A stretch of DNA of 64,000 bases from Panax quinquefolius (Eukaryota > Streptophyta > Magnoliopsida > Apiales > Araliaceae). A program made the translations under genes and the position numbers. Below, one piece after another: positions 611 through 21,457 of this stretch; the stretch's first letter is position 1, and every line of letters begins with the position of its first letter. The stretch covers positions 14,856,980-14,920,979 of the forward strand of contig CM035170.1 of the NCBI GenBank assembly GCA_020205615.1. Direction: 5' to 3'. The notes beneath the pieces were generated by a model, which did no database searches, had not been told where the DNA came from, and worked only from the letters and a program-made list of their open reading frames with translations.

Positions 611-615
611 AAGGT
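611..615. repeat. Left target-site duplication AAGGT
   Basis: AAGGT lies directly before the TG terminus of the left LTR and is repeated exactly at 21453-21457 directly after the CA terminus of the right LTR. A 5-bp duplication is what Ty3/gypsy integrases generate. It shows that 616-21452 inserted as one unit. Confidence 0.9.
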
Positions 616-1659
616 TGTCGACGTTGGGATTTTTGGGTGTCCCTTTCCGTTACTTGTTCTTTGGTGTTCTCATTTTAGGTGAGATTTGTTTGAAAAAGAC
701 AAGTGAAAAAGGCTCGACATGTATAATGTCGATGATGGGACTGTTAAGAGTCGCTAGTTGGTTTTTTAAATGGTTGTACAAACACAGCCGAGAAATGGTT
801 TGCACATTGACCCAGTGATGTGACACTGATATACGGGTCGGCGAAACCGAGATTCATTTAGGATCCGTGGACTTGGTTATGCGGGGGGAAGGTGTTAGGC
901 ACCCCCCGACATCCGTGTTACCACGGTGACCGCCTCTTTTCAAGAAACTATTATATGAGTGTGTGTGTGTGTGTGTGTGTGTGTGGGTCAATGTGTTGTT
1001 ATATGAAAGTTGCGCGAGGCCTCGTTCGAACCTATATACATAGGGTTTGAATTTATGTAAAAATTTAATTTTTAGCAAGATATGGCAATGATGTTTTATA
1101 AAAGAGGCTTTTCAAACCCTAATGCTCAATAGGAATTGAGACCTTTTACACCTCCATTTTTATTAAGTGAGCGGCTGGATTGATTTTATTTGACGGATGC
1201 AAAGCATCCGTATGAAAAATAATACATCCAAAAATAATGCCGACTTCCTCGTGGGTATGGAAACCATCTGAGGAAATACAAACATCCCAGAATAATTTAC
1301 AAGCTGCTTACAGCTGAAAATGTCCATCAAGGGAACCGAATCTAGATCCAATGAGATGAATCTGTGATCACATGATTCCTAGGCGCACAGAATATTGCAA
1401 TTTGTATAAAAGCAATAAGCAGGTATATATATAAAAGTGGTAAATATATATACAGACAGGATCACCAACCACGAAGCACCTCTATGGGGGATCAGAAATG
1501 AAAATAAAGTTGTGAATACGGTCAACCGCCATGAAGGAAACTCCAGGCGGGACAGAATGTAAATAAAGCTGTAAATGCGGTCAACTGCCACGAAGTAAAC
1601 TCCAGGCAGGACTAAATGTAAAGAAAGTAAAAATCGATCAATATCACGAAGGGAACTCG

Positions 1660-1670
1660 AGCGAGACAAA

Positions 1671-1709
<39 letters not shown>

Positions 1710-1867
1710 CAATAAACGCATTCTGGATGTAAAATCCGTGCTCATCGAACATAGTTCGACCACAGTTCATATATATATAAGTATATATATATAAAAGCGA
1801 GTAAACGCACTGCATCAAGTCTAGGCTCATCATGAACAAAGTTCACTTATACGATTAATATATATAA

Positions 1868-1908
<41 letters not shown>

Positions 1909-1961
1909 GAATAAACGCACTGCATCAAGTTCAGGCTCATCGACCAAAGTCCAACACACGT

Positions 1962-2005
<44 letters not shown>

Positions 2006-2051
2006 GCACTGGGCATCAAGTCTAGGCTCATCGAACAAAGTTCGATAGATA

Positions 2052-2098
<47 letters not shown>

Positions 2099-2215
2099 GC
2101 AATAAATGCTCCGCATCAAGTCTAGGCTCAATCGAGGCATAACTCGATAATGTTAGTCAATATATATATAAATATATATATATATATAATATATATATAT
2201 ATATACAGACCAGAA
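1660..2215. repeat. LTR-internal TA-rich minisatellite
   Basis: About six degenerate units of roughly 80-100 bp. Each combines a (TA)n run with a conserved block around AATAAACGCACTGCATCAAG, followed by TCTAGGCTCATCGAACAAAG. The matching array in the other LTR is at 19640-20240 with different (TA)n lengths, so it is a fast-changing tandem repeat. Tyrosine/isoleucine-rich ORFs here are translations of (TA)n. Confidence 0.85.
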
Positions 2216-2517
2216 TGAAACCACGGACCGAAGTCCGGGCAAAAGCAAGCAACACGACTCTCAACGTGTAGAAGGGTGTGTGTAAAGATGAAGAGAAAGA
2301 CTCTAAAGTGTGTGAGAAGGCTTATAGCTGACTGATAAAAAGGGCTTCTATATCTTTAGAGTGGGTAAACACTGGACTTTTGTGGGTACAAAAGAGGCTA
2401 TATATGAGCTCACAGGTGTTTGAAAGTGAGAAAATACAACTTTGTGTGGCAAGTGCAGAGAAAAATTGTGCGGGGTTTCCCCTCTTTTTTCTCTTAAAAT
2501 CAGCACCCCAAGCCTCT

Positions 2518-2525
2518 TATTTATA
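2518..2525 (-). promoter_or_regulatory. TATA box of the 3' LTR (minus strand)
   Basis: The + strand TATTTATA reads TATAAATA on the element's sense strand, in the context GCCTATAAATAAGAGGC. The equivalent site is at 20545-20552. Its place in mid-LTR fits a U3/R boundary promoter. The start site is not visible. Confidence 0.6.
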
Positions 2526-3117
2526 GGCAAAAGGTGCCCAGGTGTACACAATGGCTCGTGCCGCAGTGTACCCGTAGACGTGTCGGGTCGGCCGGGATTA
2601 CATTGGGTTGGGTCGTCTCGAAGTCGTGCATCACTCGAGCAATCAGTAATGTCCCCACGGATTTTGAGAAGTGCAATCCGAGCATCCGTTTTGTGGTATT
2701 CAGGACCTATTTCGGACCGCCGTTGTCGAGAGTTGTACGATGGCATGGGATTAGAGTTTGTACGAGGTCTTTGAAGATGGGACGATGCCCTCTGGTCTTC
2801 AAGCTTCAACTTTCATCCGTTACCCCGTACAATAGTCACTCGGGATTGGTTAGCCTTGTGGGACGTTGTTGCGTAGAGACGAGACGTGGCATCATGTCGG
2901 ACGAGATGGCGATGTTGCCCTCACAATGGTTATTCTTTGGATTGGTAGATAAGCGACGTTGCTCGAACTTCACCGAGATTGAATTGCTGCAGCATTTGTT
3001 GAAGGTCCTCATTGTCATCTTTGAGGTGTGCCTGTCTTCCCGATGTTATTGCCGTGTTGGCACAGTGTTACTCGTTGTGAGTGCCGAGATTAAAGCTGAT
3101 GACATTTGAAACAAGCA

Positions 3118-3288
3118 TTTCCGGGGTTATCTCTGAAACTGCATTCCTTGGGGTTATCACCAAGGTTGGTGGCTATTCCCATGGTTGGGATGAGAGATCG
3201 GATACCTCGGGGTTATCTCCAGATTAATCGATCTTCTCCGGTGTGTGTTCGGTATTGTATCTGCAAGTCTCGGGGTTAGATCCGAGGT
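3118..3288. repeat. Stem-loop cluster with constant GGTTATCN loop
   Basis: Four short hairpins: 3118-3138, 3146-3165 (CCTTGG / CCAAGG stem, loop GGTTATCA), 3205-3224 (CTCGG stem, partner damaged here) and 3269-3286 (CTCGG / CCGAG). The loop sequence stays near GGTTATCN while stem bases change together. The same cluster is at 21122-21293, where the third hairpin is intact, and in copy 2 near 58984-59160. It lies near the LTR end, next to the PPT. Function unknown. Confidence 0.7.
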
Positions 3289-3449
3289 TGAAACCGTTAC
3301 TCCTCCAGTTACGATCCGGGGTTGATCTTTGAACTTCCTGTAGTATCGGTATGGATTTGGATTGTCTTTCGTGGTTCTCTCTTAAAAGACGAATCATCCT
3401 CCCGCAATGTTAATGAATGATGAGTCTGAAAAATTTTGAGTGTCTACAG

Positions 3450-3462
3450 ATGCCCCTCTTTA
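3450..3462 (-). promoter_or_regulatory. Polypurine tract (PPT)
   Basis: Directly inside the 3' LTR. The minus strand reads GATAAAGAGGGGCATC and then the LTR start TGTAGACA. A purine run abutting the 3' LTR is the plus-strand priming site of LTR retrotransposons, and it confirms the minus-strand orientation. Copy 2 has the slightly altered equivalent near 59311-59323. Confidence 0.8.
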
Positions 3463-5439
3463 TCATACTCATGCATGGCGATGCATGGGTAGGATAAAGA
3501 ATCCTAGACACTTGAAATGCAGCAAGATAAACATGGTACTATAGATAGTAACATGATACAAATGTATGATGCATGTGTACGGGGTTGTGGCCCAACATGC
3601 TGGGGATGATTATTGGTTCCCTGTTGCTCCAACTGGGGATTGGCAATACCGACCAGATCTGATATTCAAGCCGAATCTGTTAGGATGTTGGTGTTGGAGT
3701 TATCACCAAATTCCTGTGTTCTTGATAACGACTTGATACTGAAGGGGTATCTCTTATGCGTAAGAGATCTGTGGGGATAAAGCTTGATCTATTTTAGGAT
3801 GTGTATAACATATTCCATCATCTATCCTCATTGATAATGTTGACCTCTCCTGGTTAGTATCACCAGAATATGTCATGATTCTGTTGGATTTACTGCCAAG
3901 CGCAAATGCTGTTAGGGATGCCTGACCTTTATTGACGTATGAATCAACGGCTGAAACATCCTGTGGGATATACTATCAAGGTTGCTTGACCTTCGCTGAC
4001 GTGAATCAATTGCTGAAACTCTGTGAGGAGATCGTCAAGGTTACTTTACCTTCGCTGATGTGTAGATCAACGGAGCATTGCGTTGTGACCCCCGCCGGGG
4101 ATCCGCTGGGGAATATGAGCAGCTGGGTATGAGAACCTCGAACAACTCTATAGCTCTGATAGGTTTAAATGCTATCGGCTGAAATGACGTCAAGGCTGCT
4201 TGACCTTCGTTGACGGACATGGCAACGTATGAACGTGTTGTAACCCCCCACCGGGGATCTACGTTGTAACCCCCGTCAGAGAATCACATTGTAACCCACA
4301 TTGGGGACTCACATTGTAACCGCCGTCGGGGACTCACGTTGTAACCCCTGTCGGGGACTCACGTTGTAACCCCCGTCGGGGACTCACGTAGGGTAACGAC
4401 CTGGAGTCTGCGGCATCGGACCTATATAAGGTATTGCCGTATGTGATTTGTGACAACTGAGGTCATCGGCAGAGTATACCTTGTGTTCAGGTGACTACCA
4501 ATGAGTGATGTACAGATTCAAAGTCTCATCTGAGAAGACCAGGATTGGAGTGTATGCTATTTTGCTCAATCGCGTGGCATTTTTATTCCCGATTTGACCT
4601 TTCTAGCCTGTAAGAACTCCGTTTTAACTCAAATTGGACCGAGCCAGAGGGGTGGGGCCCACATAGAGAGCCAGCAGTGCACTGCTATGACCCAGCGTGT
4701 GAGCTGCTGCCAGCGTGGATGATAAATCCCAGCAGCCTGCCTTCACAAGTCACTTTCAACTTGTTTCTCTCTAGAAAAAACCGTGAGCCACTTCCAGATT
4801 TGTTGAGTTTGGGCTACTTTCTGCAAATTCTGTCACCGTACAAGTGTTCTACACTATCCTGGTAATGTATGCATGTATTTTTCCAGTTTCTGTCCGTTAG
4901 ATTGTGAGATATTGCACGAAATGCATCTAAACACATAGTAGTGATTATGTATGCACAAATGACTTGATAAAAAATATTCAACATAGTAAATGTTAGTATT
5001 AAACCATGCTGAACATAATGATGTGAAAAAATTTGACTTCTGAGACAGTCAAATTGGCACCTTTTTCTGCTATTTTTTGTCCTATTTGAGGTCCAATGAG
5101 CAAAAGGTAGAAAGGCAAAATACTCCTAGCATTGAGGTTGGCCTTATGCATGATAATTGTGATTTTTAATCCATATATTCTGTATATGACTTTGGGGTAG
5201 GTGTGCTACAGAATGGCCACCTAGACATGCCTGTGCGCATGTGGATAGTCCTATTTTCAAAGGGGACTATGGCGAAATTTTTCCAAATATAGGCATTGGG
5301 TAGTCTTGCATTCTAACTCTATTATATGTTAAAGTAAATGAATGCATGCATATAGTCATATAATGCATTTTAGAAAGCTCCAGGTAAGGCAATACCACAC
5401 CCTTTCTGAGGTGATTTGGAGATTTGTTGTCCAGATATT
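3463..5439. other. Non-coding 3' region between LTR and antisense gene
   Basis: No credible ORF. It holds further short inverted repeats (for example CTGGTTAGTATCACCAG near 3852-3868 and GTCAAGGTTGCTTGAC-like units near 3976 and 4190), the 25-bp tandem array at 4233-4390, and about 800 bp of A/T-rich sequence well conserved in copy 2 (60700-61311). Being directly upstream of the + strand PMD gene, the 4600-5440 part is the likely place for its promoter, but I can point to no certain core element. Confidence 0.55.
4233..4390. repeat. 25-bp tandem repeat, six units
   Basis: Six direct copies built on GTTGTAACCCCCGTCGGGG plus ACTCAC; the last two differ at a single base. The CCCC/GGGG halves can pair. 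A stray unit lies near 4080. Copy 2 has the same array at about 60116-60270 with more divergence. Confidence 0.85.
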
Positions 5440-5729
5440 ATGGATCCGGATCAATAGAGCGATTCTTATAGGACCATTTCGGCGTCTGGCGGAGGGCTTC
5501 AAGTGCCTCGTCCCTGCTCGCCGCAGACTGACCTCGTTGGTTGGTGGAGGCTGTGATTCATCCCGTCCAGGCAGAGGTTCCAGACGTCGAGAACGAGGAG
5601 GTGGATATTGAGGATCCCGCTCCTGCTGTACATATCCCTCGCAAGGAGCTTCCGAGCATTCAGGTGGTGAACCCAGAGTTGCTAGGTGATTTGGGTAGAC
5701 ACCCATCGATGTACTTGCATGCTAACGAG

Positions 5730-5811
5730 GTATGACGTTAGACTTTATCTTCCTTCTTTCCTATTGATGAGGATTAAAAGGGTTCTGATGTTGATCTGTG
5801 CTTCATGCAAG
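5730..5811 (+). other. Predicted intron 1 of the PMD gene
   Basis: The donor is GAG|GTATGA. The acceptor region reads TGCAAG|TTCC here and TGCGGG|TTCC in copy 2, and both are explained by an ancestral TGCAG|GTTCC. Removing it joins NEV to PGFTQPRG in frame. The intron is 82 bp, inside the plant size range. Confidence 0.55.
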
Positions 5812-6460
5812 TTCCAGGTTTTACACAGCCTCGGGGGAACTGGTTTAGCATCCACTCCATGTACCAAGCACTTCATCCTGATTATAGAGCAGTAGTACAT
5901 GAGTGGGGATTTGGGGCATTTTTCTCCAACCTTCCCCGTCGTTGTCCCTGGGGTTACCTCAGGGCATTGTCTGAGCGATGGTTTCATCAGACTCAGTCAC
6001 TCCACCTGCTAGATGCGAGGTGCTGATGACGCCTATGGATTGGCGATTTATCACAGGTATGGAGTTTGGAGGGGAGCCAGTGCCTTGCATGGCGAATATT
6101 ACCCCTACTGCCGTCCGGTCCTTGTTAGGAGTTCCGGCGGGTGCGCTCAAAGGTAGGACTGTCTGTTCAGGTCCTTTGAGCGTAGATGTTATGAGCGGGC
6201 TATTGAGTGAGCCCATGCCTGATGATGTCAGGATCAGGGATCGCGTTTTGAGGCGATTGTTCCTGATGATCATTCGAGGCTGCTTCATAGCAGATAACTC
6301 TTCCACGGTATCTTTTGCTTTGTTCAGCACCACACGCGATGTGGACCGTATAGGAGAGTACGATTGGGGCTCTTACACCTTTTCCTATTTCCTCCGGGGC
6401 ATGCATCTGCGCTCACAGGGTTTGACCGAGGCTTGGCTAGGATTTTACCCATTTCTGCTG

Positions 6461-6540
6461 GTGAGTATTTCTCTTATCTTTTTCCTTTCACAGGTTAAGA
6501 GTGTTTACTGACAGCAGATGTTTTGCCATTGTGCTGGCAG
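6461..6540 (+). other. Predicted intron 2 of the PMD gene
   Basis: The donor is CTG|GTGAGT, followed by a pyrimidine-rich stretch, and the acceptor is GTGCTGGCAG|TTTTGG. The length is 80 bp. Splicing here gives PFLL|FWAYERLP in frame, which restores the conserved W-x-W/Y-E-R-x-P part of the domain. A nearer CAG at 6491-6493 would leave only 33 bp, too short for a plant intron. Confidence 0.65.
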
Positions 6541-7305
6541 TTTTGGGCCTATGAGAGGCTTCCATGTTTGCGTCCTGTGAGTGTGTTAGGCTTAGATACC
6601 TATCCACGAGGATGACGATGGCACCATTCAATATCTGAGGGCTTCGCTCATTGCCGTATGCAGCTGGAGCTACTGACGGCTGACGCCATTACATGGATTC
6701 CATACTCAGGGGATCATTTGATCATCGGTTTTGAGGATGGACACCCTACTGGAGTAGAGTATTTGATTTACACCCGGAGATTTCCTCTTTTCACAGATGG
6801 AGGCTGGGAGCTCTATTTAGGAGAGCGTGCTATTAGGAGCACCACAGGGGAGATTCAGATACCGATCTTGCCTCTTGTCGAGCGTCATTAGCTTTATATC
6901 ACAGTCACCCGCCATTGATATTGCATTGTTGGGAGTTAACGGTTTTGATTTATCCGAGAGTCCATGTACTCAGGAGATATTCCAAGCCGGTGGCTCCTTC
7001 AAGCCTATTGGGGCCCGATCCGCGCCACGAGTTTATGGGGACATGGTTCTGGATCATTGATGATGACGGATTGGGTAGCTTGTGTTCGAGCTCCGACCCG
7101 TATGACCCAGATTGATAGCTTGACCAGGCAGTTGGATCGGGCACAGATATTTATTCGGCATTTGGGCAGAGATCCAGCAGAGGTGGAGACATTTGTTCCT
7201 TCCAGCTCAGGTGTTGGCCCCTCAGATGACCCATTTGGTTTTGCCCGCGCAGATCCTCCCCTTTATAGGCCTGACATCCCTGTTGATAGAGATCCAGTAA
7301 CTTAG

Positions 7306-7979
7306 GAGGAGTTATATCAGGTGGACAGGATTGAGGATGTGGACATCGAGACCATTGTCTTCTTCTGATGTGTATTCTCGCTATATCTTTAGATAGACCT
7401 CTGTTAGATATTGGGTGGTTATTCCCCATTCTCGCTATATCTTTAGATAGGCCTCTGTTAGTAGTAGGGCGTTTGTGCCCCATTTTCATGTACTTGTAGC
7501 TGTACAGAGCTGATGTATTAGATGATGATATATTTAGGAATGTATGCACCATTTTTTCATTCCCTATATCATATTTCCATCCATTATCATGTTATGCATG
7601 TATCATGTTATGCATATGTATGTATGTCCGAGAGATACTCAGTATTGACCCTGGATGGTCTTATGACACGGCCGCATGATGTCTTCTTCGACGCTTAGCC
7701 ATATAGATCATACCCCACCGTCGGTGGTGGCATTGGGTATCTTGCTCGTGGTATGATAACATGTCACCACCGGATAGGGTGATTTGTAGATCTGTTATTA
7801 CAGATATACCATGACCCTTTTGGCATTTCGAGTTCCTCGCAGGATTTGTAGATGGGATGCTAGAGCATTGGCAATAGGATAGGCGGTGTATTTCGCTTTG
7901 GTACCCATAAGTTGACTCCTACTACGGAGGAGTATGCGTTTTGACGATCTTTGCCCTAAACCGACCTTACGTGCACATG
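7306..7979. other. Spacer between the two PMD-like modules
   Basis: No conserved ORF. It contains a 50-bp direct repeat (CATTCTCGCTATATCTTTAG and flanks, near 7370 and 7430) and T-rich sequence that could be the 3' end of the upstream gene. The same stretch in copy 2 (63179-63840) keeps the repeat. Confidence 0.5.
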
Positions 7980-7988
7980 GCTTTGGGA

Positions 7989-9441
7989 GACATGAGTAGA
8001 CGATTCATGACTCTCACCGGATTGAGGCGCAGTGGTGCGGGATGAGTGACATCCGCCACGTGATCTCTCGGCATTTTCTCGTGTGTGATGATTTGGTGCG
8101 GAGGATAGCTACTCACGACATTCGGGGATTTCACCGTGTGTCGGGAGGATCATTGGCGTTTGGCGAGAGTTGATGTCTTGATACTATGTGTCTTTCGTCA
8201 TACGTATACATGCCGCGAGTACATGGATGAGATAGATATAGGCGTTATCATGGGGGGTGAGAGCTCTCGGGGGGTCGTACCATTGTACCTATGATCGTGG
8301 CGAGACCTTGCGATCGGCGTCTCTCCCCAACGTACTTACCCGTCAGATGTGTTTACTGGGAGTTCGGTCATGCTGTATGTGTGGTTTATGTCACACTTGC
8401 GACCGGTTGGTACCTTTAGATGGCACGGGTATTGTTTCTCCCATGAGGTGGCTATGTCGTATTCCTTTTAGCCATCGGAGTGTGTAGATGCTCAGTCCTG
8501 GTCCGTATTTTTGGCAGATATCCGAGATCCATTTAGCATATTGTTGTGCTCGGGGCTTTGCTCACCATACAGCTTCATTACTCATGCTCCGGGCATGGAT
8601 TTTCTCCCTTTGGCTGGCTTGAGGGGCGTGACGACTTATCATCCATTGGCCGTGATGTCGCAGTTTGATAAGTTCCAGGATTTTCATTATTTCGAGGGGG
8701 CGGCAGTTCAGCACTCAGCTTCTCGATACCTCTCAGCCGAGGACCGATCTCGTGTATACGCTTGTTGGGATCAGCGTGAGCTAGCTGTTTTTCCTGCCAG
8801 TCGTCCCGGTTATTCCGCAGAGTACTCCGCATGGATGGAGACGAAGGTTTTATCGGCTGCAGCAGTATTTGCTGTACCGGAGATTAAGTTAGACGATGTA
8901 GAGCCTATAGAGGACATTAATACCTACATCGAGGAGGATACCGTTGTTGGGTTGCCAACATTTCTTCTGGATTCTCCTAGTACCAGTACTTTTGTGATCC
9001 AGCACTCGGCACAGTATTTAGAGCAGAGTCTTCATCTGATGACCTTTGAGAGAGATCAGATCCGATCTATGATATTGATTGCTCTGGATGTGAGGGACGC
9101 TGCCCTATTAGAGAGAGACGAGGCATTAGCTCATAGAGATGCCGCTGTGGTTGAGCGGGATGAGGCCAGGTCAGACAGAGATGCAGTGATAGTTGAGCGG
9201 GATAGTGCTATATCTGCCCGGGATGTGGTCATCACGAGATAATCTCGCAATGAGGTCCCTTACCACTGCTATGATCGCAGAGATGAGCACTTATATCGAT
9301 GAGCATATGGTCATCATGCAGATGGCTACAGATCTATTGGGTCGTGTGGATATTCTTATCCAGGAGACTACAGCTTTACCTCCTTCATCTGAGAGGGATG
9401 CCATGTTGATTTTGTTAGCTCGCATGTACCCTGATTCGTAG
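7989..9441 (+). pseudogene. Second PMD-like module with coiled-coil tail
   Basis: Broken + strand coding region. An ATG near 7989 opens MALGDMSRRF; a second frame from 8043 reads MSDIRHVISRHFLVCDDLV. The middle (8170-8510) is too damaged to read. The best part is 8511-9242: TYHPLAVMSQFDKFQDFHYF and a following W-x-Q-R / PGYSAEYSAWM pattern match the arginine/QF and Y-x-x-W tail of PMD proteins. It is followed by a charged heptad-like coiled coil (ERDEALAHRDAAVVERD) at residues 200-243. A frameshift near 9238 moves the reading to 9239-9441, ending in LARMYPDS and TAG. It is either a second PMD gene or the displaced end of one. The coiled coil looks like BPC/GAGA-binding proteins only in composition. 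Confidence 0.5.
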
Positions 9442-10592
9442 ATGAGCTTGTATTTACCTTAACAGACTAGCTTAGCCATTTTGTCATGTGCAGTTCACAT
9501 TGTATATATACCAAACAGCATTATATATGATAGGGAAATATATTTTTAGATCACTTCCCTTTTAGATATGCCTTGCTATTTGCTTGATATTTTTACTGCA
9601 CGCTTTGAGGCTTTGTGATCTTGATGAATTTTGAATTCTTCCTTGGTGGATGGACATTGAGTTGTCTCTGGATAGTTCAGAATGGATCATCGATCTATGT
9701 ATATCCCTACCATCTTTGGTGTCTTGGGACTTGTTTCTGTATAGAAATGTGGAGAGGAGTGTGGCTTTCCTCACTGAGATTGACCGCACCACAGATGGTC
9801 GCCAGTACTTTTGTTTAGGAGAAGCCTAGTTAATTCCACCTCTTATGGTTTAGTATTGCTCTTCGAGGTATGACCGCAGCTTAGATGGTCGCCGAATCTC
9901 CTATTTGGGAGGAGTTTAGGCAATTCCATCCCTTAGGTCTGAAGCCGAATGACATATAATGGATTGAAAGGGAATCCCAACACCCGTTGATAATGGTTTG
10001 TGTTTTGGTAGGGGGTGAGACCGCACCATGAATGGCTGCCTACGTACTCTTATTGAAGAGGAGATCAGGTCTGCGTTTGTTCGAACCTAGTCTAAGAGGT
10101 TCAACGTTGTATATGGCTGATATGGTGTAGGAATGTTTTTGGTTGTTTTTGTTTTTGTAAGGAGAAGAGGGTAGAAATGTTTTTGTTGTTTTTGTTTTAT
10201 TGCGACCAGGCCATATGAAATGGTTGCCTACGTACTCCTATTGAAGAGGAGATCAGGTCGACGTAGTTCACCCCTCAGGGCGAGAAGAAAAGCGTAATCC
10301 CATGTGCAGGTCAGAGTGCGGGGAGGAGAAAGTTTAATCCTATGTTGAGGATAAAATGCAGGCAGGAGAAGTTTGATCCCATGTATAGGTAGCCAAACTG
10401 CAAACGCAAGAGGTTCAATCCACGGTGGGATGACCTAAGTTGTATGAGCACAAAGGAGAAAGCCAGGCTGCTGGCTTGAAGAGTATGTTTCCCTGAGGGG
10501 CAAAGTGTAGAAAAGTTGTAGGTGGTAAAGGGTTAAAGAACCGGAATGACTGGTGACCTGATGATTATGCTCCAGGGTGTTTGCTGGTTACT
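9442..10592. other. Non-coding region between antisense modules and the integrase end
   Basis: No convincing ORF on either strand. The centre is the four-unit repeat array at 9777-10285. The rest (10290-10590) is purine-rich on the + strand. Confidence 0.5.
9777..10285. repeat. Four-unit hairpin-bearing repeat 3' of pol
   Basis: Units near 9777-9862, 9869-9945, 10015-10100 and 10201-10285 share GACCGCACCA...ATGGTCGCC, where GACC can pair with GGTC. This is followed by TACGTACTCTTATTGAAGAG or a variant whose CTCCT...AGGAG halves also pair. The two right-hand units are closest and keep TGCCTACGTACTC. Similar TGCCTACGTA sequence is, from memory, common 3' of pol in Tat/Ogre elements. Role unknown. 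Confidence 0.65.
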
Positions 10593-11785
10593 TCAGACAT
10601 AATACCGTTTCACGATGTCTGAGTTGATGAGTTTTGGAAATTCATCGCCATCCATTTCTTGTAATCTAAGAGCGCCTCCTGTCAATACTTCTTTGACAAT
10701 AAACGGGCCTTCCCAGTTAGGAGCGAATTTTCCTTTTGATTTTAATTGTCAAGAATCTTCTTCAGAACCAAGTCATGTTGTTTAAATTATCAGTAATGCG
10801 GGACTTTTTGTTGTAGGATCTGGCGATCCTTTCTTGATATAAATGACCATGGAAGATAGCCGCGCGGTTTCGCCTTTCGTCTATCGAGAGATAATTGGTG
10901 ATACCTATCTTGTACCCATTGGTTTTCATCCAGCTGAGCGTCGATCAACACTCTGAGAGATTCCATCTCAACTTCTATGGGGAGCACTGCTTCCATCCCA
11001 TAGGTTAAAGCGTAGGGGGTTACCCCAGTTGAAGTAAGCATTGAAGTTCTGTAGGCTAACAGAGTAAAAGGCAACAGGTTAGGCCAATCTTTGTGGTTGG
11101 CTGACATCTTTTGCATAATCTTCTTGATACTTTTGTTAGCCGCTTCAACAGCACTGTTCATATTCGGACGATAGATGACAGAGTTAAGATGTTTGATGTG
11201 GAATCTACTGTATAATTCCTCCATCATTTTGTTGTTGAGGTTTTTGGCATTGTCTGACACAATCACCTTTGGTTGTCCATATCGACAAATGACATTGTTT
11301 CTGATGAAAGCAATGATGACTTCTTTAGTGACCCTGGGGAAGGAGGCTGTTCCTACCCACTTGGTGAAGTAGTCGATCATGGTGAAGATAAATCGGTGAC
11401 CATTACTGGCTTTAGGCTCAATGGGCCCAATAACGTCCATTCCCCACATTGAGAAGGACCAAGGCGAACTCATATTGTGGAGCTCCCGTGGAGGGGCGTG
11501 TATAGCATTCCCATAAATCTGGCACTGATAGCATCTTCTGACGTGGTCGTTGCAATCAGCTTTGAGAGACAGCCAGTAATGTCCCGTCCTGAGGACTTTC
11601 TTGACAATGAGGGGGCCACTCATGTGGGGGCCACAGACTCCGCCATGGATTTCATCCATAAGCCTTTGGGCTTGATCTTTGTCTAGACACCTGAGAAGAC
11701 CTAGTCCTGCATCTCTTTTATAGAGCGCATCTCCACTCAGGAACAACTTCATAGCAAGTCGATGGATCCGCCTTTTCTCAGTCAT
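10593..11785 (-). CDS. Integrase (INT), Tat/Ogre element
   Basis: Last domain of Pol; inserts element cDNA into chromatin. Counting from 11785, the zinc-binding HHCC domain uses H47, H54, C85 and C88. The catalytic triad is complete: D117 (GMDVIGP), D178 (VSDNA) and E214 (SAVEAANK), with the Tat-typical spacing and AVEAANK context. The open frame runs to 10790; a frameshift between about 10790 and 10870 then leads to the C-terminal part at 10593-10740 (FAPNWEGPFIVKEVL and SDIVKRYYV, stop at 10593-10595). One of the best preserved parts of the element. It shares its frame with the RNase H segments upstream. Confidence 0.88.
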
Positions 11786-12118
11786 GCTCGCCTCAGTGGG
11801 TGTAGATCCATCTTGCAGATATTCCTTGATATGCTAATACCAATGAGGTTGGATGGGAGGTAGCTCACCCGATACTTCTCCAACGTAATTCCCATAGGCT
11901 GGGGCCTTGTGTAGGGAAATTGTGACGCTTGGCAAGTGTTCCTTGTCTGATATGCGAATCAAGGAGGCCAAAGTTGCTAATCGTCCATGAAATCATTCCT
12001 ATTATGAGGAATGTGTAGAAAGGAGATTCCTTGAACTCAAAAGCCATCTCCAAAACTCTGCCGATGGTAAGGCGGCAAATGTAGTTCCTTGGTTTGATAG
12101 ACTCGGTGGATTATGCGA
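11786..12118 (-). pseudogene. Pol linker between aRNH and INT, decayed
   Basis: Reads in the same frame as the flanking domains but with stops. The short ORF at 11865-12053 has no clear motif. Tat elements normally have a linker of this kind leading to integrase. Nothing else is visible. Confidence 0.5.
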
Positions 12119-12350
12119 TTACCAACTCAAATCTCCAAGGGCGATTAATCGCTTGATGCCCATTGAACGGGAAAGTTTTAGTCCCATGAGACGACCTTCA
12201 TACTCGGTAGTATTGTTAGTCTTGACAAAACCGTAATTTGACAACAGCGGATACTGCTCCCGTGTCGATATTAGAATTGCTCCACTCGGAACCTTCCATA
12301 TTAATGACTCCATCAAAATACATCCTCCATGATTGGCGGCGTATCGTCTT
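12119..12350 (-). pseudogene. Second (archaeal-type) RNase H, aRNH
   Basis: A second RNase H downstream of the retroviral one is a hallmark of the Tat lineage. WRMYFDGVINMEG is readable near 12350-12310 in one frame; GAILIS, then TNNTTEYEGRLMGLKL and GIKRLIALGD follow in the frame of 12119-12316. This matches the usual order FDGA / GAGVIL / TNNxAEYEAxxxGL / GDS. The frame change near 12310 breaks it. The last acidic motif is GDLS instead of GDS. Confidence 0.75.
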
Positions 12351-12502
12351 GATGGTGTTCTTTGTCTTTGTCATTACTCCATCATCGAGAAATATGTTTC
12401 AAGGGTTTGAAATCCCACGAAGGTGCGGCGACGGTTGATCTACGATTCCTTGACCTTTGATGGACTTTTGAGTCACATATACGATGTCAAATTGTTGTAG
12501 GA

Positions 12503-12769
12503 TCAACTCGCCATCCGGACGACCGAATTCAATTCAACATGGGTTTGTTGAACACGTATTTTGAGAGGATCCACGCGGGATATGAGGTGGGTTGTGTGAC
12601 CATGGAGGTAATGCAAGAACCTCATGGAGACCCATGCTAAAGCACAACACGTCTTCTCGATCAAAGTGTAATTGTGTTCACTTCTTCTTTGAACCTTTTC
12701 TTTGAGGTAATAGATAGCTCGTTCTTGGCCTCTATCGTCTTTCTGTCCCAAAGCCCATGGCATTGTCAC
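12503..12769 (-). pseudogene. Retroviral-type RNase H (RNH)
   Basis: Degrades the RNA strand of the RNA:DNA hybrid. Visible motifs are AIYYLKEKV, then YTLIEKTCCALAW and HTTHLISRVDPLK, the typical Tat RNH order. The segment starts late: the first catalytic region lies upstream in another frame (12770-13090, with PLFMYLSVSDNAMGFG). There are frameshifts on both sides. Confidence 0.8.
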
Positions 12770-13097
12770 TTACGGACAGATACATGAACAGGGGAACATC
12801 ATCCCTGGGTGGTACCAAGACGGGAGCTTTGACTAGCTATTTCTTGATTGTAAGGAAGGCATTCTGGCACTCATCATTCCATTTCATGGAGGAGTTCTTC
12901 CTTAATAACTTTGAAGATTGGCTCACGCTGAGTTCTTTGTGAGTTGGGAGATAAACTTGCTTGATGAAGTTGATCCTTCCCAAAAATCCCGTATTTCCTT
13001 CTCTCGTCTCGAGGAATGGGCATTTCGTGATGGCTTAGATTTTGGCGGATCCACCAATCCTTTGTGGTGACTTAGAAATCCTAGCAACTTGCACGAT

Positions 13098-13662
13098 TTA
13101 ACGCCAAAGGCGCGCCAGTGGATTCAACTTCAAGTTGTACTTACGCAACCTGTTGAACAACTTTCTGAGATGGTCTAGATGGTCATCCTCCTTCCGGGAC
13201 TTGACAATGATGTCATCCACATAGATCTCAATCTCTTTATGCATTAAGTCGTGAAAAAGAGCCATCATAGCTCGTTGATAGGTAGCTTCGGCATTGATGA
13301 GGCCGAATGACAACCGTCTATAGCAAAATGTTCCCCAAGGAGTGATGAAAGCAGTCTTCTCACGATCTTCCTCGGCAACCATGATCTGATAGTACCCCGC
13401 AAAGTAATCAAAGAAAGGAGTACATATGTCGTATTGCTGCGATATTGTCAATGAGAATGTGGATAAATGGCACGGGAAAACTATCTTTTAAGAAAGCTTT
13501 GTTCAAGTCCCGGTAATCCACGCAAACTCGCACCTTCCCTCCAGGTTTAGGCACGGGTACAATGTTGGATATCCACTCAGGATATGTAGACACCATGATG
13601 ATGCCGGCTTGAAATTGTTTCACAATTTCTTCTTTCACCTTTAAACTCCATTCAGGTTTCAA
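13098..13662 (-). pseudogene. Reverse transcriptase (RT) core
   Basis: RT of the Tat lineage in two frames. The N-terminal half (13662-13408) has KPEWSLKVKEEIVKQF, VPVPKPGGKVRVCVDYRDLN and PFIHILIDNIA. After a +1 shift near 13440, the C-terminal half (13451-13098) has FFDYFAGYYQIMV, EKTAFITPWGTFCYRR, the fingers-palm FGLINAEATYQRAM, and the catalytic YVDDIIVKS. All three catalytic aspartates are present (FFD and YVDD). GLKNAGA-type sequence is altered to GLINAEA. Confidence 0.88.
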
Positions 13663-13677
13663 TCGCTTTGAGCTTTT

Positions 13678-14569
13678 TTAACTCGGCTTAAATCCCTCTT
13701 TAATGGGAAGGCGATGAAGGACAATGTCAGTGGATAAACCTACCATGTCTTCATGAGACCATGCAAACACATCCTGGAATTGGGTTAATAGCGTAACCAT
13801 GTCATTCCGTTGGTTTGGGGTAAGGTCTGAACCAATCTGGATTAACTTAGGGCTTTCTAAGGTTCCGAGATTGAAAGAAGTGGTTTGATCAAGGTTAGGT
13901 TTGGGTTTGTCTTTGACCCATTCTTGAATTTCTGGAGGCACCTCAATGTCATCCTGGAGATCCATCAAGGCTGAATTCATCTCTACATCAAAGGTACAAT
14001 CCTTGCGTAGGAGAGGCATCGTATCCGCAAAATCTGAGCACATCTAAATTCGAGTCCCGAAAAAAATATGCTTTCACTTAGTATATATAAAATGTTTGAT
14101 CATACAGTGTTAGCATATCTTGGCAAAATAAACCGCTAATACTGCATGTGCAAAAGTAAAATAAGCAGTTATTATATCTCTGAGGCGAGAAAAAGAATTT
14201 ACGCCCGCTTTACCCTTGTCGACCAAATCAAGGAATGTTGTTCCAATTGGTAAGGGTAAAGTCCAGGTGGACCGCAGTGATGGAGGGATTGTCATCATCC
14301 TCCTTGTCCCGAATGATGGCCATTACGTCAGGGCAATCATCGTCTGGGGTGTATCTGTTGGTATGTTCATCATGGACGATGATGCGCATGCCCGACATTA
14401 TTCGGACAACGTTTTCCTTGATTCTCCGCTCCTTTTCTTCGATTGCGGGATCTGGAATAACGATTTTCTTTTCCTCCACCGGTTTTGGCTTAGGAAATAA
14501 CATGGCCATGACATTGGCTGGCACCTTTACTGGAGGTTGTGCCGACTCGAGAGTTTGAGGCGAAGCCAA
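13678..14569 (-). pseudogene. Protease-RT linker and RT N-terminal extension
   Basis: 13678-14043 reads IEVPPEIQEWVKDKPKPNLD, FNLGTLESPKLIQIG and DVFAWSHEDMVGLS, the standard sequence before RT in Tat elements. It ends at an in-frame TAA (13678-13680) directly before RT. 14228-14569 is a lysine/glutamate-rich linker in another frame. In Ogre an intron is removed between PR and RT (from memory); I could not place splice sites here with confidence. Confidence 0.65.
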
Positions 14570-15008
14570 CGCGCCACATGGTTGAAGCTAAAGGAATCTG
14601 TTGATGCTTATGAGGATTCCTGTGACTAGAGCTGGCAGAATAGCCTAGTCTAGCTGTTCCAACTTGCTTGGTTAATCGAATGGGGTACTGGATACCCTGG
14701 CCATCTTTACCCAACCCTTGTACTGGCTTATGCCCCAACGACATCATTTCTTGAGTGGCTGACATTACCTCAGCAGAAATGTGGGGTTCGGGCAGTGGTG
14801 CTCCAATAGCATGGTATTGGGTGTTGCTTATTTCCAAAGCATGAAAACTTACTGGTTCTACATCTGCATTGGCATTAATGAACGGAATGTCCCCGTGCTG
14901 AGGAATCTCTGGTTCAGCGTTGACCGTGACCAGGCTCTTGTTGATAATGTACTTCAATTGTTGGTGAAGGGTGGAGGGATCGCCTTGCCATATGGGATCC
15001 ATGGTCAT
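14490..15008 (-). pseudogene. Segment downstream of protease
   Basis: Carries DPIWQGDPSTLHQQLKYI and LVTVNAEPEI, which correspond to the conserved block after the protease (…AGAVPSSLHQKLKF…VTVxxE) in Tat elements. It also has a G-patch-like GLGKDGQGI. It overlaps the protease end in a different frame, which implies a frameshift near 15010. Confidence 0.65.
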
Positions 15009-15265
15009 CCCAAGAGCAGGTTGTATCCCGAATCTATCTTGAGCACATGGAAGGATACGCAGAATGTATGAGGGCTAATTTCGATTGGCAGCTCAATTAC
15101 TCCAACCAAGTTACGGTGGGCTCCATCAAAAGCTTTGATGATAGTATGGCTACTCTGAATTCGGTTGAGATTGATATTCATCTTCACCAAGGTGGCATAT
15201 GGGCAGATATTCAAAGAGGAACCTCCATCTATTAAGACTCCAGCCACCATATATCCGGAGGACAA
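15005..15265 (-). pseudogene. Aspartic protease (PR)
   Basis: Matures the Gag-Pol polyprotein. The active-site motif is VLIDGGSSLNICP, which has G where most have T, S or N, followed by IIKAFDGAHR, GVIELPIEI and YNLLLG. It is in frame with the preceding gag segment, separated by one TAG (15269-15271). DGGS may be weakly active or inactive. Confidence 0.78.
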
Positions 15266-15268
15266 AAC

Positions 15269-16228
15269 CTAAATGTGCAATGGTTTGCAATGACCGGTTC
15301 CTTCGGATGGTATGTCATCATCAGTGAAGGATATCACATTGTTGTTGAAAATGTGATCAACTATGTGTTGAAACTTTTCCGTATCCACTAATGTCGGGAG
15401 ATAGGCTTCTTCTAGAACCTTTAACAAGACCTTCAGGTGATTCTCAGAGGTTAGGACCAAGTCCAAAATTGATATTTGTGGTGGAGCTTCCTTCAAGCTT
15501 AAACCCACCGAGGCTTCGTTATAACCCACAGCGCGGAGGAATTTTTCAATCTTCTCCATGGGTATTTTCCCTTTTGATTTGGTGGTGGGGTTCATCATCC
15601 GATGGGGAAGATATAGTGGATTTTCCTTTGACACTGCAGCAGTGGTATGTGAGGTGGATCCTTCACCTTCTCCATAATTCCATGGAACCTTGCACAAGCT
15701 AACAATAGGATATTTTACTCTGCATGGCAAGTTGATTGGCTCGGGAGCGGCCACTTTCAAAGGACTGTTTCCTCCTCTGAGTTGAATTATTGGTGTTGTG
15801 AGCAAAGTATTAATCCCTTCAGCTTCAGTGGATATAACTGCTACCACACTTTTCCACTTAGTAGGGCCTGCATTCTCACTTGCACGTAACACAGTGTCGT
15901 TATCTGCCAAGCGCAGTACACCACTGTCGATTAGATTTTGAATAAGGTGGCGGAGTGCCCAACATTCTTCTGTGTTGTGACCGCGAGACTGGGAGTGGTA
16001 TTGACATACTCCATCAAAGTTGTACCATCCCGAACGGGGGTTGATTGGAGGTAGAAGGGAACTGATCCTTCCTTCATTGATTAACATGTGAAGGATTTCC
16101 TCCATGGGTTGTCCCAAATAGGTGAATTCCCGTTTGTTGGCGAAATCCCGACGGGCTTTGGAATTTGCTCTCTTCGTCACTTTGTCTTTCAGCATTTCAT
16201 TTTCTGAAAGGGACGAGGGAATATTCAT
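15269..16228 (-). pseudogene. Gag C-terminal segment with second zinc knuckle
   Basis: 320 codons. A helical lead (GQPMEEILHMLINEGRIS) is followed by SGWYNFDGVCQYH and a Tat-type zinc knuckle CQYHSQSRGHNTEEC, then WALRHLIQNLIDSGVL. It repeats the module at 16309-17121 (ENILNLLTTQKKI, CVYHAGAPGHDTKDC, WALKHKIQDLIDNG), so Gag has two knuckle modules. It ends at an in-frame TAG followed at once by protease. Confidence 0.75.
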
Positions 16229-16308
16229 GATGATTGGCAGGAGACTGGCATGCTCCTGGCTGATTAATTGCCAAGTGACTTGATCTTTGATAAGTCACCG
16301 ATTCATGA

Positions 16309-17121
16309 TTACTCAATTTGTTTACAGAGAGCTTTCATCTTTCGTTCTATTGTGAACTGGAACTTAGCATAATACCATCTGTCATCATCGTCTTTGATGG
16401 TCTGGGGGGAATCACAGCTGAAGTTAGAACTCTGTCCACTGCTCCAATTAATCATGTTGACCTCTTCTTCTTTATGTTGAGGAAGAGGGTTGTCTTGTAC
16501 GCGAGGATGATCAGGTTTGGTGACTACGATCTCTCCATTATCTATTAGGTCCTGGATCTTGTGTTTCAAGGCCCAACAATCCTTAGTATCATGTCCAGGT
16601 GCCCCGGCATGATAAACACATTTCCTAGCAGCATTGAAACCCCATCCATTAGGGCTGGCTGGTAGAAGAAGATGTGTAATTTTCTTCTGTGTTGTCAGAA
16701 GATTAAGAATGTTCTCGAGGGTATCCCCTAAGGGTGTAAACACTCGATGGCGTTTGACTTCTCCACCTTTTGGTACTGGAGGGTTTGCAGACTGTGCTGG
16801 AAAGGGAGTGTAGTTTCTCCTTTGAATGGGCATACTTTGATTGCCTTTTTGCCCCTGTAGTATCAGGGAAACATCTTCCTCTTTCTTTTTATGGACCCTC
16901 CGGGGGTTGTTCCCATAATTTCCAGATTGGATGTTATCAACAACAGCTTTGAGTGCGGCTAGGTCTTGAATCTTTCCTGATTTAAACCCCATTTTAGCCA
17001 TCTCCCCATGCTTAACCATTTCAGAAAATGGTTTGCCGATGCCGGCTAAAACTCTCTCATAGAAGGGAGCTTCTTGTATGTCTATGAATGTCATGACCAT
17101 TTCTGGATTTGGACATGGCAT
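16309..17121 (-). pseudogene. Gag central segment with first zinc knuckle
   Basis: Nucleocapsid part of Gag. The capsid end reads FYERVLAGIGKPFSEMVKHG, then a basic linker and the knuckle CVYHAGAPGHDTKDC, then WALKHKIQDLIDNGEI. Upstream, 17122-17263 continues the capsid in another frame (NESFREYAQRWRRLA), so a frameshift separates it from the N-terminal part. Confidence 0.78.
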
Positions 17122-17263
17122 GACTAACTTGGCCGCCAGGCGTCTCCACCTTTGAGCATACTCTCTGAAAGACTCGTTAGACTGTTTCTTGATCTTGGTA
17201 ATCTAATCTGGGTCGAGGAGCCATTTGAGTTTGAAAAGCAGTATTGAGTGAGGAAGGCATGTG

Positions 17264-17911
17264 CTAGCTCTTCCCACTGGGATTTTGGAGTTGTCTAATC
17301 TTGTGTACCACACGCGGGCTTCTCCAGTTAGACTCTTTTGGAATAATTGCATTACGAGTTTTCATCCTCTGCATAGGATCCCGTTCTCCAATAAAGACTT
17401 TTAAATGTGTATAAGGATCCCCTAACCCGTCATATTTTTCAAAGTCAGGAGTTTTAAATTTTTCTGGATAGTGAACACCAGGAAAAATACATAGATCAGC
17501 ATATGAAACACTCCCGTGTGTTCCAATTCCTTTGATAGCGCAAAGGGTCTCTTCCATTTGGAGGACTTTCTTTTTGATGTCACCATTGTCTGGATCTTCA
17601 GTGGAATGGGCAGCATCATGCGTTTTGTTGGTCGTATCCAACTATGGTTCTGGTATGGTAATGACCGGAATTCCTCCTTGTGTGGAGGGCTCAGTATGTA
17701 CGGGTATTTTTTGACCCTGTGTAGACTGGTGTAATTCTTTTAATAGAACATCCAAATCTGTAATCTGTTTGCTTAACCCATCGAATTCTTTGCGAAAAAC
17801 TGGATTAAGTTCAGTCTGGTCGAATGACGACATGATTGACTGTAGGCATGTTGCCTTTTTTGACTTTGACCGGGTAGTAGGTCCGATTGACTCCCTGCAA
17901 AAGACTGGCAT
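17264..17911 (-). pseudogene. Gag N-terminal segment
   Basis: Starts MPVFCRESIGPTTRSKSKK. One in-frame TAG (17642-17644) splits it; the frame continues with DTTNKTHDAAHS and the conserved capsid start FKTPDFEKYDGLGDPYTHLK. It ends in frameshifted sequence before 17263. No ORF1 upstream of gag is visible in the 650 bp to the PBS, unlike classical Ogre. Confidence 0.75.
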
Positions 17912-18567
17912 AGTTTAGTCCTTAGGGAAGGTGTATAATGACATGCTATGTGATGTGTCCATTTTAGGAATTTTATCATGCAAAATGGGTGTCAGCTGTT
18001 CAGAGCATGTATGTGGACATATTGCTTCATATTTCTCATTACATGGAGATAGATATGGAATGAGTGTTTACAAGAAATTGAAATGAGAGCATGAAGAGAC
18101 TTTCCTTCATTTTGGGTTTATCAGAGGCTGACCTATCTTAGGTTACTCTCGCGGCTTTTTGGCAGGAAGGTTCCCAAATCATCGCAATCTACTAGGCGGG
18201 AAGTTAATCCGGTCTTTTCAACCGGAGCGAATTTGGGTGGTGCCTTTCTGAGCCTCGGAGAATTAGTCTTCTCACGAGTCCAGTGATCAAATCACCGACG
18301 GGATAGCCTCCTGGTGGAGGGACCACACAACATACATTCACATACATCGTGTCTCACCGTATGAAATGATGACATGTGCGAAGCACTAATATCATAAGCA
18401 GTTTATAGTACGAAGCACTAACATCACACGCAGATATGATCACGAAGCACTAAGCTCAAACAAGACATGCATTCGTACACATTCATCCAATGTAAATGCA
18501 ACATCCACACACAAGCAGATAACGGTTTTGAAAAGATTGTAGTAGCGGCTTAAGTCCTCTTCTTGAG
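17912..18567 (-). other. 5' untranslated leader of the Tat/Ogre element
   Basis: Between PBS and gag. No ORF. A short repeat, ACGAAGCACTAA, appears near 18378, 18413 and 18441. Nothing else is seen. Confidence 0.5.
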
Positions 18568-18585
18568 TCCCCATGAGAGTCGCCA
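18568..18585 (-). promoter_or_regulatory. Primer binding site (PBS)
   Basis: The minus strand reads TGGCGACTCTCATGGGGA, one base after the 5' LTR end. TGG at the LTR junction is the complement of the tRNA CCA tail. The sequence resembles the tRNA-Arg type PBS I remember for Ogre elements; the exact tRNA was not checked. Confidence 0.7.
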
Positions 18586-18918
18586 CTTTCGACGTCGGGA
18601 TTTTTGGTGTCCCTTTTCCATTACTTGTTCTTTGGTGTTCTCATTTTAGGTGAGATTTGTTTGAAAAAAAAAGTGAAAAGGTCCGACATGTATAATGTCG
18701 ACGATGGGACCTGATAAGAGTCGCCATTGGTTTTTAAATGGTTGTACCAACCAACCGAGAAAAGGTTTTGCACATTGACCCATGATGTGACAACGATATA
18801 CTGGTCGGTGAAAACGAGATTCATTTAGGATCCGGGGACTTGGTTATCGGGGGGAAGGTGTTAGGCACCCCAGACATCCGTGTTACCCCACGGTGGCCGC
18901 CTCTTTTCAAGAAACTAT

Positions 18919-18950
<32 letters not shown>

Positions 18951-19639
18951 GAGTCAATGTGTTTGTTATAAGAAAGTTGTGCGAGGCCTCGTTCGAACCT
19001 ATATACACAGGGGTTTGAATTTATATAAAAATTCAGTTTTTAGCAAGATATGGCAATGATGATTTATAAAGAGGTTTTTAAACCACGATGCTCAATAGGA
19101 ATTGAGACCTTTACACCTCCATTTTTATTAAGTGAGCTAATTTGGATTGATTTTATTTGACGGATCTGAGGCATCCGTATGAAAAATAATACATCCAAAA
19201 ATAATGCCGACTTCCTCGTGGGTATGGAAACCATCTGAGGAAATACAAGACATCGCAGAATAATTTACAAGCTGCTTACGGCTGAAAATGTCCATCACGG
19301 AAACCGAATCTAGATCCAATGAGATGAATCAGATCACATGATTCCTAAGCGCATGAAATATTATAATTTGTATAAAAAAGCAATAAGCGGTATATATATA
19401 AAAGCGGTAAATATATATATACTGAGACGGGATCACCAACCACGAAGCACCTCCATGGGGATCGAAATAAATAAATAAAGTTGTAAACACGATCAATATA
19501 CGAAGAAAACTCCAGTAGGGACGAAATGTAAATAAAGTCATAAATGCGGTTAATCGCCATGAAGTAAACTCGAGCGGGACTAAATGTAAAGAAAAGTCAG
19601 AAAAGCGATCAAGCGCCACGAAGGAACTCGAGGCGGAAT

Positions 19640-19825
19640 AAATAAATATAATATATATATATATATATATATATAAAGCAATAAACGCACCGGATGTAAA
19701 ATCCAGGCTCATCGAACATAGTTCGACCACAGTTCATATATATAAGTATATATATATATAAGCGATATAAATATATCAAACCGAAGTCTAGGCTCATCGA
19801 ACAACGTCCAGACATATATATAAGT

Positions 19826-19870
<45 letters not shown>

Positions 19871-19904
19871 GCACATGCAAAGTCAGGCTCATCGAACAAA
19901 AGTC

Positions 19905-19952
<48 letters not shown>

Positions 19953-20009
19953 CGAATAAACGCACTGCATCAAAGTCTAGGCTCATCGAACAAAGTCCAG
20001 ACACACGGT

Positions 20010-20053
<44 letters not shown>

Positions 20054-20194
20054 AACGCACTGCATCAAGTCTAGGCTCATCGAACAAAGTCCGACAGACA
20101 GCTTAATATATATATATATATATATATATAAAAGCGATAAACGCCAGCATCAAGTCTCAGGCTCAATCGAGGCATAACTCGATAATGTTAGTCA

Positions 20195-20239
<45 letters not shown>

Positions 20240-21452: not shown

Positions 21453-21457
21453 AAGGT
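21453..21457. repeat. Right target-site duplication AAGGT
   Basis: Exact match to 611-615, directly after the CA end of the 5' LTR. Confidence 0.9.

What the first reader, a model, noticed from the sequence alone, without database searches (positions are those of the whole stretch)
5440..7305. Spliced plant-mobile-domain gene on the antisense strand of a Tat/Ogre retrotransposon
Seen: PMD motifs (SERWFHQTQ, DRIGEYDWGSY, FWAYERLP) on the + strand, while gag-pol is on the minus strand. Two introns (82 and 80 bp) have GT-AG ends only on the + strand, and splicing intron 2 restores FWAYERLP. Known, from memory: Tat elements can carry extra ORFs, some antisense and some with PMD. Inference: the gene has its own promoter and was kept through transposition, since two copies of the element carry it. 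Intron retention in a retroelement is possible only because the gene is antisense to the genomic RNA.
Basis: partly seen in the sequence, partly recalled or inferred. Interest (0 to 1): 0.8.

Follow-up and report, generated by a model that had tools for sequence, protein, structure and literature searches.

The report
Decayed antisense gene in plant retrotransposon
A large plant retrotransposon carries, on the strand opposite its own genes, the broken remains of an intron-bearing plant mobile domain gene, apparently with a second related gene beside it; genes of this kind are already known passengers of such elements, so it is mostly ordinary.

Summary
The window carries a 20.8-kb Ty3/gypsy element (616-21452, minus strand, 2.8-kb LTRs, 5-bp target duplication). 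Between pol and the 3' LTR lies a plus-strand, i.e. antisense, plant mobile domain (PMD, PF10536) gene, 5440-7368. Single open pieces fail Pfam's cut-off; the joined read-through passes (E 8.6e-16). Intron 2 (6461-6540) is well supported: its removal raises the PMD score, and a 92%-identical relative reads into the same intron. Intron 1 as drawn (82 nt) breaks the frame. The gene is dead here: frame breaks and stops, at least three of them shared with the second copy, so 'two copies carry it' does not show selection. Copy 2 also looks rich in sequence errors at CAG/CTG. [quoted passage not shown] So: a new, decayed member of a known kind; its fresher points are the antisense intron seen in two sources and the apparent tandem pair.

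The parts
616..21452 (-). Ty3/gypsy LTR retrotransposon (copy 1), gag-pol on the minus strand
   Evidence: LTR pair and TSD; RVT_1, RNase H and rve on minus strand
611..615 (.). target-site duplication AAGGT, left
21453..21457 (.). target-site duplication AAGGT, right
616..3448 (-). 3' LTR (2.83 kb)
   Evidence: 93.1% identity to 5' LTR in ungapped columns
18587..21452 (-). 5' LTR (2.87 kb); inner end approximate to a base or two
16312..17202 (-). gag-like ORF
   Evidence: weak Retrotrans_gag match E 0.19, below cut-off
14493..15074 (-). ORF with G-patch domain between gag and RT
   Evidence: PF01585 E 5.5e-6, 26.7 bits, cut-off 22
13101..13487 (-). reverse transcriptase fragment
   Evidence: PF00078 E 1.8e-19
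12506..12769 (-). RNase H fragment
   Evidence: PF17917 E 2.2e-11
10793..11833 (-). integrase
   Evidence: PF00665 E 2.8e-9, PF17921 E 5.3e-6
5440..5729 (+). gene A (PMD), exon 1, broken (TAG at 5455, one frame break)
5829..6460 (+). gene A, exon 2 (PMD core; one frame break at about 6000-6030; 6026-6460 open and 92% identical to P0007)
6461..6540 (+). gene A, intron 2 (80 nt)
   Evidence: same intron read through in P0007
6541..7368 (+). gene A, exon 3 (end of PMD core and tail; stops at 6613, 6889, 6916, 6937, 6946, 7303 before the last at 7366)
   Evidence: relative P0001 from 6658 on
7977..9438 (+). gene B: second antisense gene, broken; its relatives match PMD/DUF7745; repetitive, coiled-coil-like tail (by eye); 5' end not defined
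   Evidence: relatives P0002-P0005; the window's own ORF 8475-9239 matches neither PMD nor DUF7745
58875..63999 (-). second, truncated copy of the element (3' LTR end to about copy-1 position 8134)
61312..63239 (+). gene A counterpart in copy 2, heavily broken and with apparent sequence errors

Best explanation
A decayed copy of a Tat-lineage, Ogre-like Ty3/gypsy retrotransposon that carries the lineage's usual accessory (extra) ORF: a plant mobile domain gene placed between pol and the 3' LTR in antisense, with at least one spliceosomal intron, followed by a second antisense gene apparently of the same broad family. In intact relatives the + strand would be transcribed from a promoter lying between the 3' LTR and 5440, spliced, and translated into a PMD protein; because gene and intron lie antisense to the genomic RNA, the intron is not spliced out during retrotransposition and is inherited with the element. 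The protein probably acts in the nucleus as a regulator, plausibly by interfering with or imitating host PMD proteins (MAIN/MAIL1) that silence transposons. Shown: position, orientation, PMD match, intron 2 in two sources (by sequence), lesions. Inferred: promoter, splicing, protein, function (this function perhaps 0.3-0.4 likely). In this copy the gene is dead.
For: Element with LTRs, TSD and minus-strand pol. PMD match of the read-through E 8.6e-16. Intron 2: frame, motif and score all restored by one consensus junction; relative P0007 (ENA contig of 1462 bases) matches 133 of 145 exon residues and then continues through the intron to the same in-frame stop, so an unspliced intron sits in another copy. 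Relative P0001 follows exon 3 from 6658 to the same C-terminus without copy 1's stops at 6889-7303. Gene B: relatives P0002-P0005; P0004 matches PMD (E 6.3e-6) and DUF7745 (E 1.4e-5), both below cut-off, P0005 DUF7745 (E 4.7e-6, 26.3 bits, cut-off 26). Literature: PMD in 57% of Ogre elements (PMC6317226); PMD-A1/A2 clades only in Gypsy elements (PMC5418596, passages); [quoted passage not shown] PMC11963269); element PMD as possible counter-silencing is a proposal in PMC8616336 (passages).
Against: No transcript, promoter or splice data. No intact copy of the whole gene was seen: the read-through found 1 relative among 4367 candidates at E up to 1e-3, exon 2 found 1 among 214 at E up to 10, both fragments from short contigs of unnamed organisms. 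Alone, P0007 matches PMD only at E 0.24 (and DUF1985 at 0.0041, below cut-off) and P0001 shows no PMD match. P0001 and P0004 are not detectably alike, so kinship of genes A and B rests on their separate profile matches; gene B's own ORF matches only GAGA_bind, E 0.0012, below cut-off. Intron 1 is ambiguous. The Ogre label rests on size, LTR length, domain order and PMD; no RT tree was made and the extra RNase H gave no Pfam match. Exon versus intron divergence between copy 1 and P0007 (12 of 145 vs 4 of 16 residues, Fisher p 0.057) only hints at selection.
Confidence: 0.8

Rival explanations
1. The PMD block is a host gene or a MULE-type DNA transposon that landed in this one element, not an accessory gene of the family.
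For: PMD genes also occur as host genes and in MULEs (PMC5418596, passages); the block has an intron and its own orientation like a host gene.
Against: Copy 2 has it at the same place with the flanking internal sequence, though copy 2 may be a duplicate of copy 1; PMD-A1/A2 clades are Gypsy-only and PMD is in 57% of Ogre elements in print; no inverted-repeat pair of 150 bases or more flanks the block, though short terminal repeats were not sought.
Confidence: 0.08
2. The gene is intact in the plant and its frame breaks are assembly errors.
For: Parts of this window carry an error-like signature: in copy 2 only 10 of 76 copy-1 CAGs are kept against 74% of all trinucleotides, and gap events (259) nearly equal mismatches (303); the two LTRs of copy 1 also keep only 9 of 28 CAGs of the 3' LTR, with 117 gap events to 188 mismatches.
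Against: The copy-1 PMD region shows no CAG/CTG depletion (observed/expected 1.06 and 0.96 for the two bins of 4001-8000); stops at 5455, 6613 and 7303 are in both copies.
Confidence: 0.1
3. The antisense unit matters as RNA, not protein: an antisense transcript that makes double-stranded RNA with the genomic RNA and regulates the element.
For: Proposed for such ORFs in PMC7264820 (passages); compatible with the dead frame here.
Against: Protein-level conservation: 133 of 145 residues with P0007 and a PMD match E 8.6e-16 imply a coding past.
Confidence: 0.1

Closest known systems
PMD-bearing extra ORFs of Ogre-clade (Tat) Ty3/gypsy elements; PMD-A clades
   Same: PF10536 domain carried inside a giant Ty3/gypsy element with long LTRs
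   Different: Here antisense, with an intron, broken, and followed by a second gene with PMD/DUF7745-type relatives; orientation and introns of the published PMD ORFs could not be checked, since the supplements could not be opened and Steinbauerova 2011 is not held
[quoted passage not shown] TRP28 domain)
   Same: Place and antisense orientation; a nuclear or regulatory role has been proposed for them
   Different: Those mostly carry Transposase_28 (PF04195), which no + strand piece scanned here matched; LTRs of 315-1194 bp (PMC11963269) against 2.8 kb here
Host PMD genes of the PMD-C family (MAIN, MAIL1, MAIL2, MAIL3)
   Same: PMD
   Different: Host genes, of which MAIN and MAIL1 act in transposon silencing (PMC7156037, PMC5418596, passages); this one lies inside an element and is broken. 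Which PMD clade it belongs to was not tested

Membership tests
LTR retrotransposon, Ty3/gypsy | LTR pair, short target duplication | tested here: met
   LTRs 616-3448 and 18587-21452, AAGGT on both sides
LTR retrotransposon, Ty3/gypsy | order RT-RNase H-integrase | tested here: met
   minus strand: RT 13101-13487, RNase H 12506-12769, integrase 10793-11833
Tat lineage, Ogre clade | additional RNase H (aRH) between RNase H and integrase | tested here: inconclusive
   minus-strand piece 12122-12370 lies there and looks like an RNase H segment by eye (recalled motif), but has no Pfam match; the stretch 12001-14000 is CAG/CTG-depleted
Tat lineage, Ogre clade | RT phylogeny | not tested
   no reference RT set was at hand
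Tat lineage, Ogre clade | tRNA-Arg primer binding site | not tested
   a TGGCGACTCT stretch follows the 5' LTR; no plant tRNA set to compare
Plant mobile domain family (PF10536) | score above Pfam gathering cut-off | tested here: met
   58.5 vs 34.9 bits for the joined read-through; none of five single open pieces passes
Plant mobile domain family (PF10536) | open reading frame | tested here: not met
   stops and frame breaks in both copies: a pseudogene of the family
Antisense aORF between pol and 3' LTR (aORF-3R) | position and orientation | tested here: met
   5440-7368 (+) between integrase from 10793 (-) and 3' LTR ending at 3448
Antisense aORF between pol and 3' LTR (aORF-3R) | antisense transcription | not testable with these tools
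   no RNA data

The most novel reading that the evidence does not exclude
This family carries an antisense accessory cassette of two diverged PMD-type genes in tandem (PMD, then a PMD/DUF7745-type protein with a coiled-coil-like tail), at least one with an intron that the antisense layout protects from loss; an element-encoded, spliced regulator of host PMD silencing.
Probability: 0.25. Interest if true: 0.5.

Novelty: new member of a known kind. Interest (0 to 1): 0.27.

Why it matters
An intron kept in an antisense accessory gene is a clean natural marker: it would show that the RNA that is reverse-transcribed is the sense RNA and that the accessory gene is expressed separately. A review of these ORFs asks that antisense and spliced transcripts be looked for (PMC7264820, passages). 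Two PMD-type genes side by side would bear on the open question whether host PMD silencing genes came from elements or the reverse (PMC5418596, passages). For this copy alone the value is small, since it is dead.

Tried and rejected
Pfam on five single gene A pieces: best PMD 12.6 bits, so the pieces alone do not prove the domain; a weak DUF1985 match (E 0.015-0.062, cut-off not reached) was not followed. dN/dS between copies 1 and 2: not attempted, because copy 2 looks unreliable and the relatives are known as protein only. Age order of the copies from three LTR pieces: pairwise alignments made copy 1's 5' LTR the long branch (mismatches 33, 18, 40), a three-way alignment gave private sites 44 in copy 2, 35 in copy 1's 5' LTR and 11 in its 3' LTR; left open. 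The 95% match of 4970-5269 to copy 2 as a sign of a conserved promoter: not claimed; the stretch is AT-rich (36% G+C) with 23 CAG/CTG per kb against 42 in gene A, which could explain it. Viral-contig scan with P0001: 6 pattern matches, none a relative. PDB by sequence with P0004: no match at E up to 1. No structure was predicted. Papers holding DUF7745: 0.

Full report
What is there. The window holds a 20.8-kb LTR retrotransposon on the minus strand, 616-21452, with LTRs of about 2.83 and 2.87 kb and the 5-bp duplication AAGGT on both sides. The LTRs differ at 187 of 2724 ungapped aligned sites; some of this may be sequence error, see below. Minus-strand pieces match reverse transcriptase (E 1.8e-19), RNase H (2.2e-11) and a G-patch domain (5.5e-6) and integrase (2.8e-9). 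The order RT-RNase H-integrase makes it Ty3/gypsy. Size, LTR length and the PMD gene fit the Ogre clade of Tat; the defining extra RNase H could not be confirmed (no match) and no RT tree was made.

Its pieces in three frames carry the motifs named. None of the five gene A pieces scanned alone passes the PMD cut-off, the best being 12.6 bits. The read-through with X at breaks scores 58.5 bits, E 8.6e-16, cut-off 34.9. Choosing the pieces by eye favours a match, but not by this much. As a control, 8 of the 13 minus-strand open stretches of 70 aa or more in the same region (counted) were scanned and match nothing at E up to 10; the other 5 were not scanned.

Introns. Intron 2 (6461-6540) stands. 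Of 8 GT-AG pairs tried, 6 give an open frame; only this one has both a consensus donor and the whole FWAYERLP. Adding exon 3 through it lifts the PMD score of the preceding exon piece from 12.4 to 31.8 bits. A protein predicted from another source, P0007 (ENA, contig of 1462 bases, organism not given), matches 133 of 145 residues of the exon and then runs on through the intron to the same stop: the intron is present, unspliced, in another copy. Residue differences are 12 of 145 in the exon and 4 of 16 in the intron (Fisher p 0.057), a hint and no more. In copy 2 the donor is kept but the acceptor AG is not, at a CAG, where copy 2 is unreliable.

State of the gene. Copy 1 has a TAG at 5455, a frame break in exon 1, another at about 6000-6030, and in the exon 3 frame stops at 6613, 6889, 6916, 6937, 6946 and 7303 before the last at 7366. 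Around 6890-7070 the true frame is uncertain, since relative P0001 there resembles another frame of copy 1, so the three stops at 6916-6946 may not count. Copy 2 has the stops of 5455, 6613, 6916, 6937, 6946 and 7303 and lacks that of 6889. The one at 6613 lies in the PMD core; at 7303 relative P0001 has Q; no relative covers 5455 or 6613. Shared stops mean the frame was most likely dead before the two copies parted.

Copy 2 and sequence quality. Copy 2 begins right after a 100-N gap (58775-58874) and runs off the window. Against copy 1 it keeps 10 of 76 CAG and 31 of 93 CTG, while 74% of all trinucleotides are kept; the commonest replacements of CAG are CGG (18) and CG (14). Gap events number 259 against 303 mismatches, but 5 against 63 in three other repeat pairs of the window. 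The two LTRs of copy 1 show a milder form: 9 of 28 CAG kept against 73% of all trinucleotides, 117 gap events to 188 mismatches. In 2-kb bins CAG+CTG fall to 0.42-0.57 of expectation at 12-14, 44-48, 54-56 and 60-64 kb, and to 0.58-0.59 at 24-26 and 50-52 kb. The simplest reading is systematic long-read error at methylated CHG sites, but it is my inference; natural mutation at such sites may contribute, and I found no paper that shows this pattern (one search, listing only). The copy-1 PMD region is not depleted (0.96 and 1.06).

ORF 8475-9239 has five protein relatives at E up to 0.01. P0002 (82% identity over 43% of the query) and P0003 cover its tail and show where it ends (9438); P0004 and P0005 cover the part from 7977. 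P0004 matches PMD (E 6.3e-6) and DUF7745 (1.4e-5), both below cut-off; P0005 matches DUF7745 (4.7e-6, 26.3 bits, cut-off 26). The fifth, P0006, is of another family and matches only the repetitive tail. The window's own ORF matches neither PMD nor DUF7745 at E up to 10, only GAGA_bind below cut-off, and P0001 (gene A) and P0004 (gene B) are not alike by BLASTP. So the kinship of the two genes is indirect. On this evidence the element seems to carry two PMD-type genes in tandem, both antisense.

How it likely works. In intact relatives an antisense promoter near the 3' LTR would drive a spliced mRNA for a nuclear PMD protein; the sense genomic RNA carries the introns as harmless antisense sequence, so they survive reverse transcription. 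An antisense promoter upstream of such an ORF is reported for maize Grande (PMC7264820, passages). Host PMD proteins MAIN and MAIL1 act in transposon silencing (PMC5418596, PMC7156037, passages), and a counter-silencing role for element PMDs has been proposed (PMC8616336, passages). All of this is inference for the present element.

What is known. PMD was found in 57% of Ogre elements (PMC6317226, section 13); it was the most frequent extra domain in a survey of 121 angiosperm genomes, in 10 species, 40 without the authors' filter (PMC9289625, section 12); the PMD-A1 and A2 clades are Gypsy-only (PMC5418596, passages). All recently active Retand clusters examined have antisense coding regions between pol and 3' LTR, 97% with TRP28 (PMC11963269, abstract, start of the text, sections 11 part 1 and 12). 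I saw no description of an intron in an antisense PMD ORF or of a PMD/DUF7745 pair in searches, of which I opened seven papers in parts only; the founding paper (Steinbauerova 2011) is not held and supplements could not be opened, so this is no proof of novelty.

Verdict. New, decayed member of a known kind.

Noticed in passing
58875-63999, also 12001-14000, 44001-48000 and 54001-56000: CAG/CTG triplets are depleted to roughly half of expectation (58001-60000: 0.65); in copy 2 CAG is often replaced by CGG or CG and one-base gaps abound, as if from systematic long-read error at methylated CHG sites. Frames in these stretches should not be trusted.
   Followed up: partly
7977-9438 (+): Second antisense gene, broken, whose relatives match PMD/DUF7745, with a repetitive tail (RDAALLERDEALAHRDAAVVERDEA...).
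   Followed up: partly
14493-15074 (-): G-patch domain in the gag-pol region (E 5.5e-6); G-patch in plant LTR elements is listed in PMC9289625.
   Followed up: no
47907-48650 and 52336-53255: Two inverted repeats, arms 191 nt (88%) 362 nt apart and 167 nt (92%) 586 nt apart; possibly small DNA transposons.
   Followed up: no
28212-29329, 34432-35724, 55321-56661: Three copies of another repeat family, two direct and one inverted, most listed pieces 86-94% alike.
   Followed up: no
1672-2205 and 19638-20236: Tandem, low-complexity array inside both LTRs (self-matches; IYIYIY runs).
   Followed up: no
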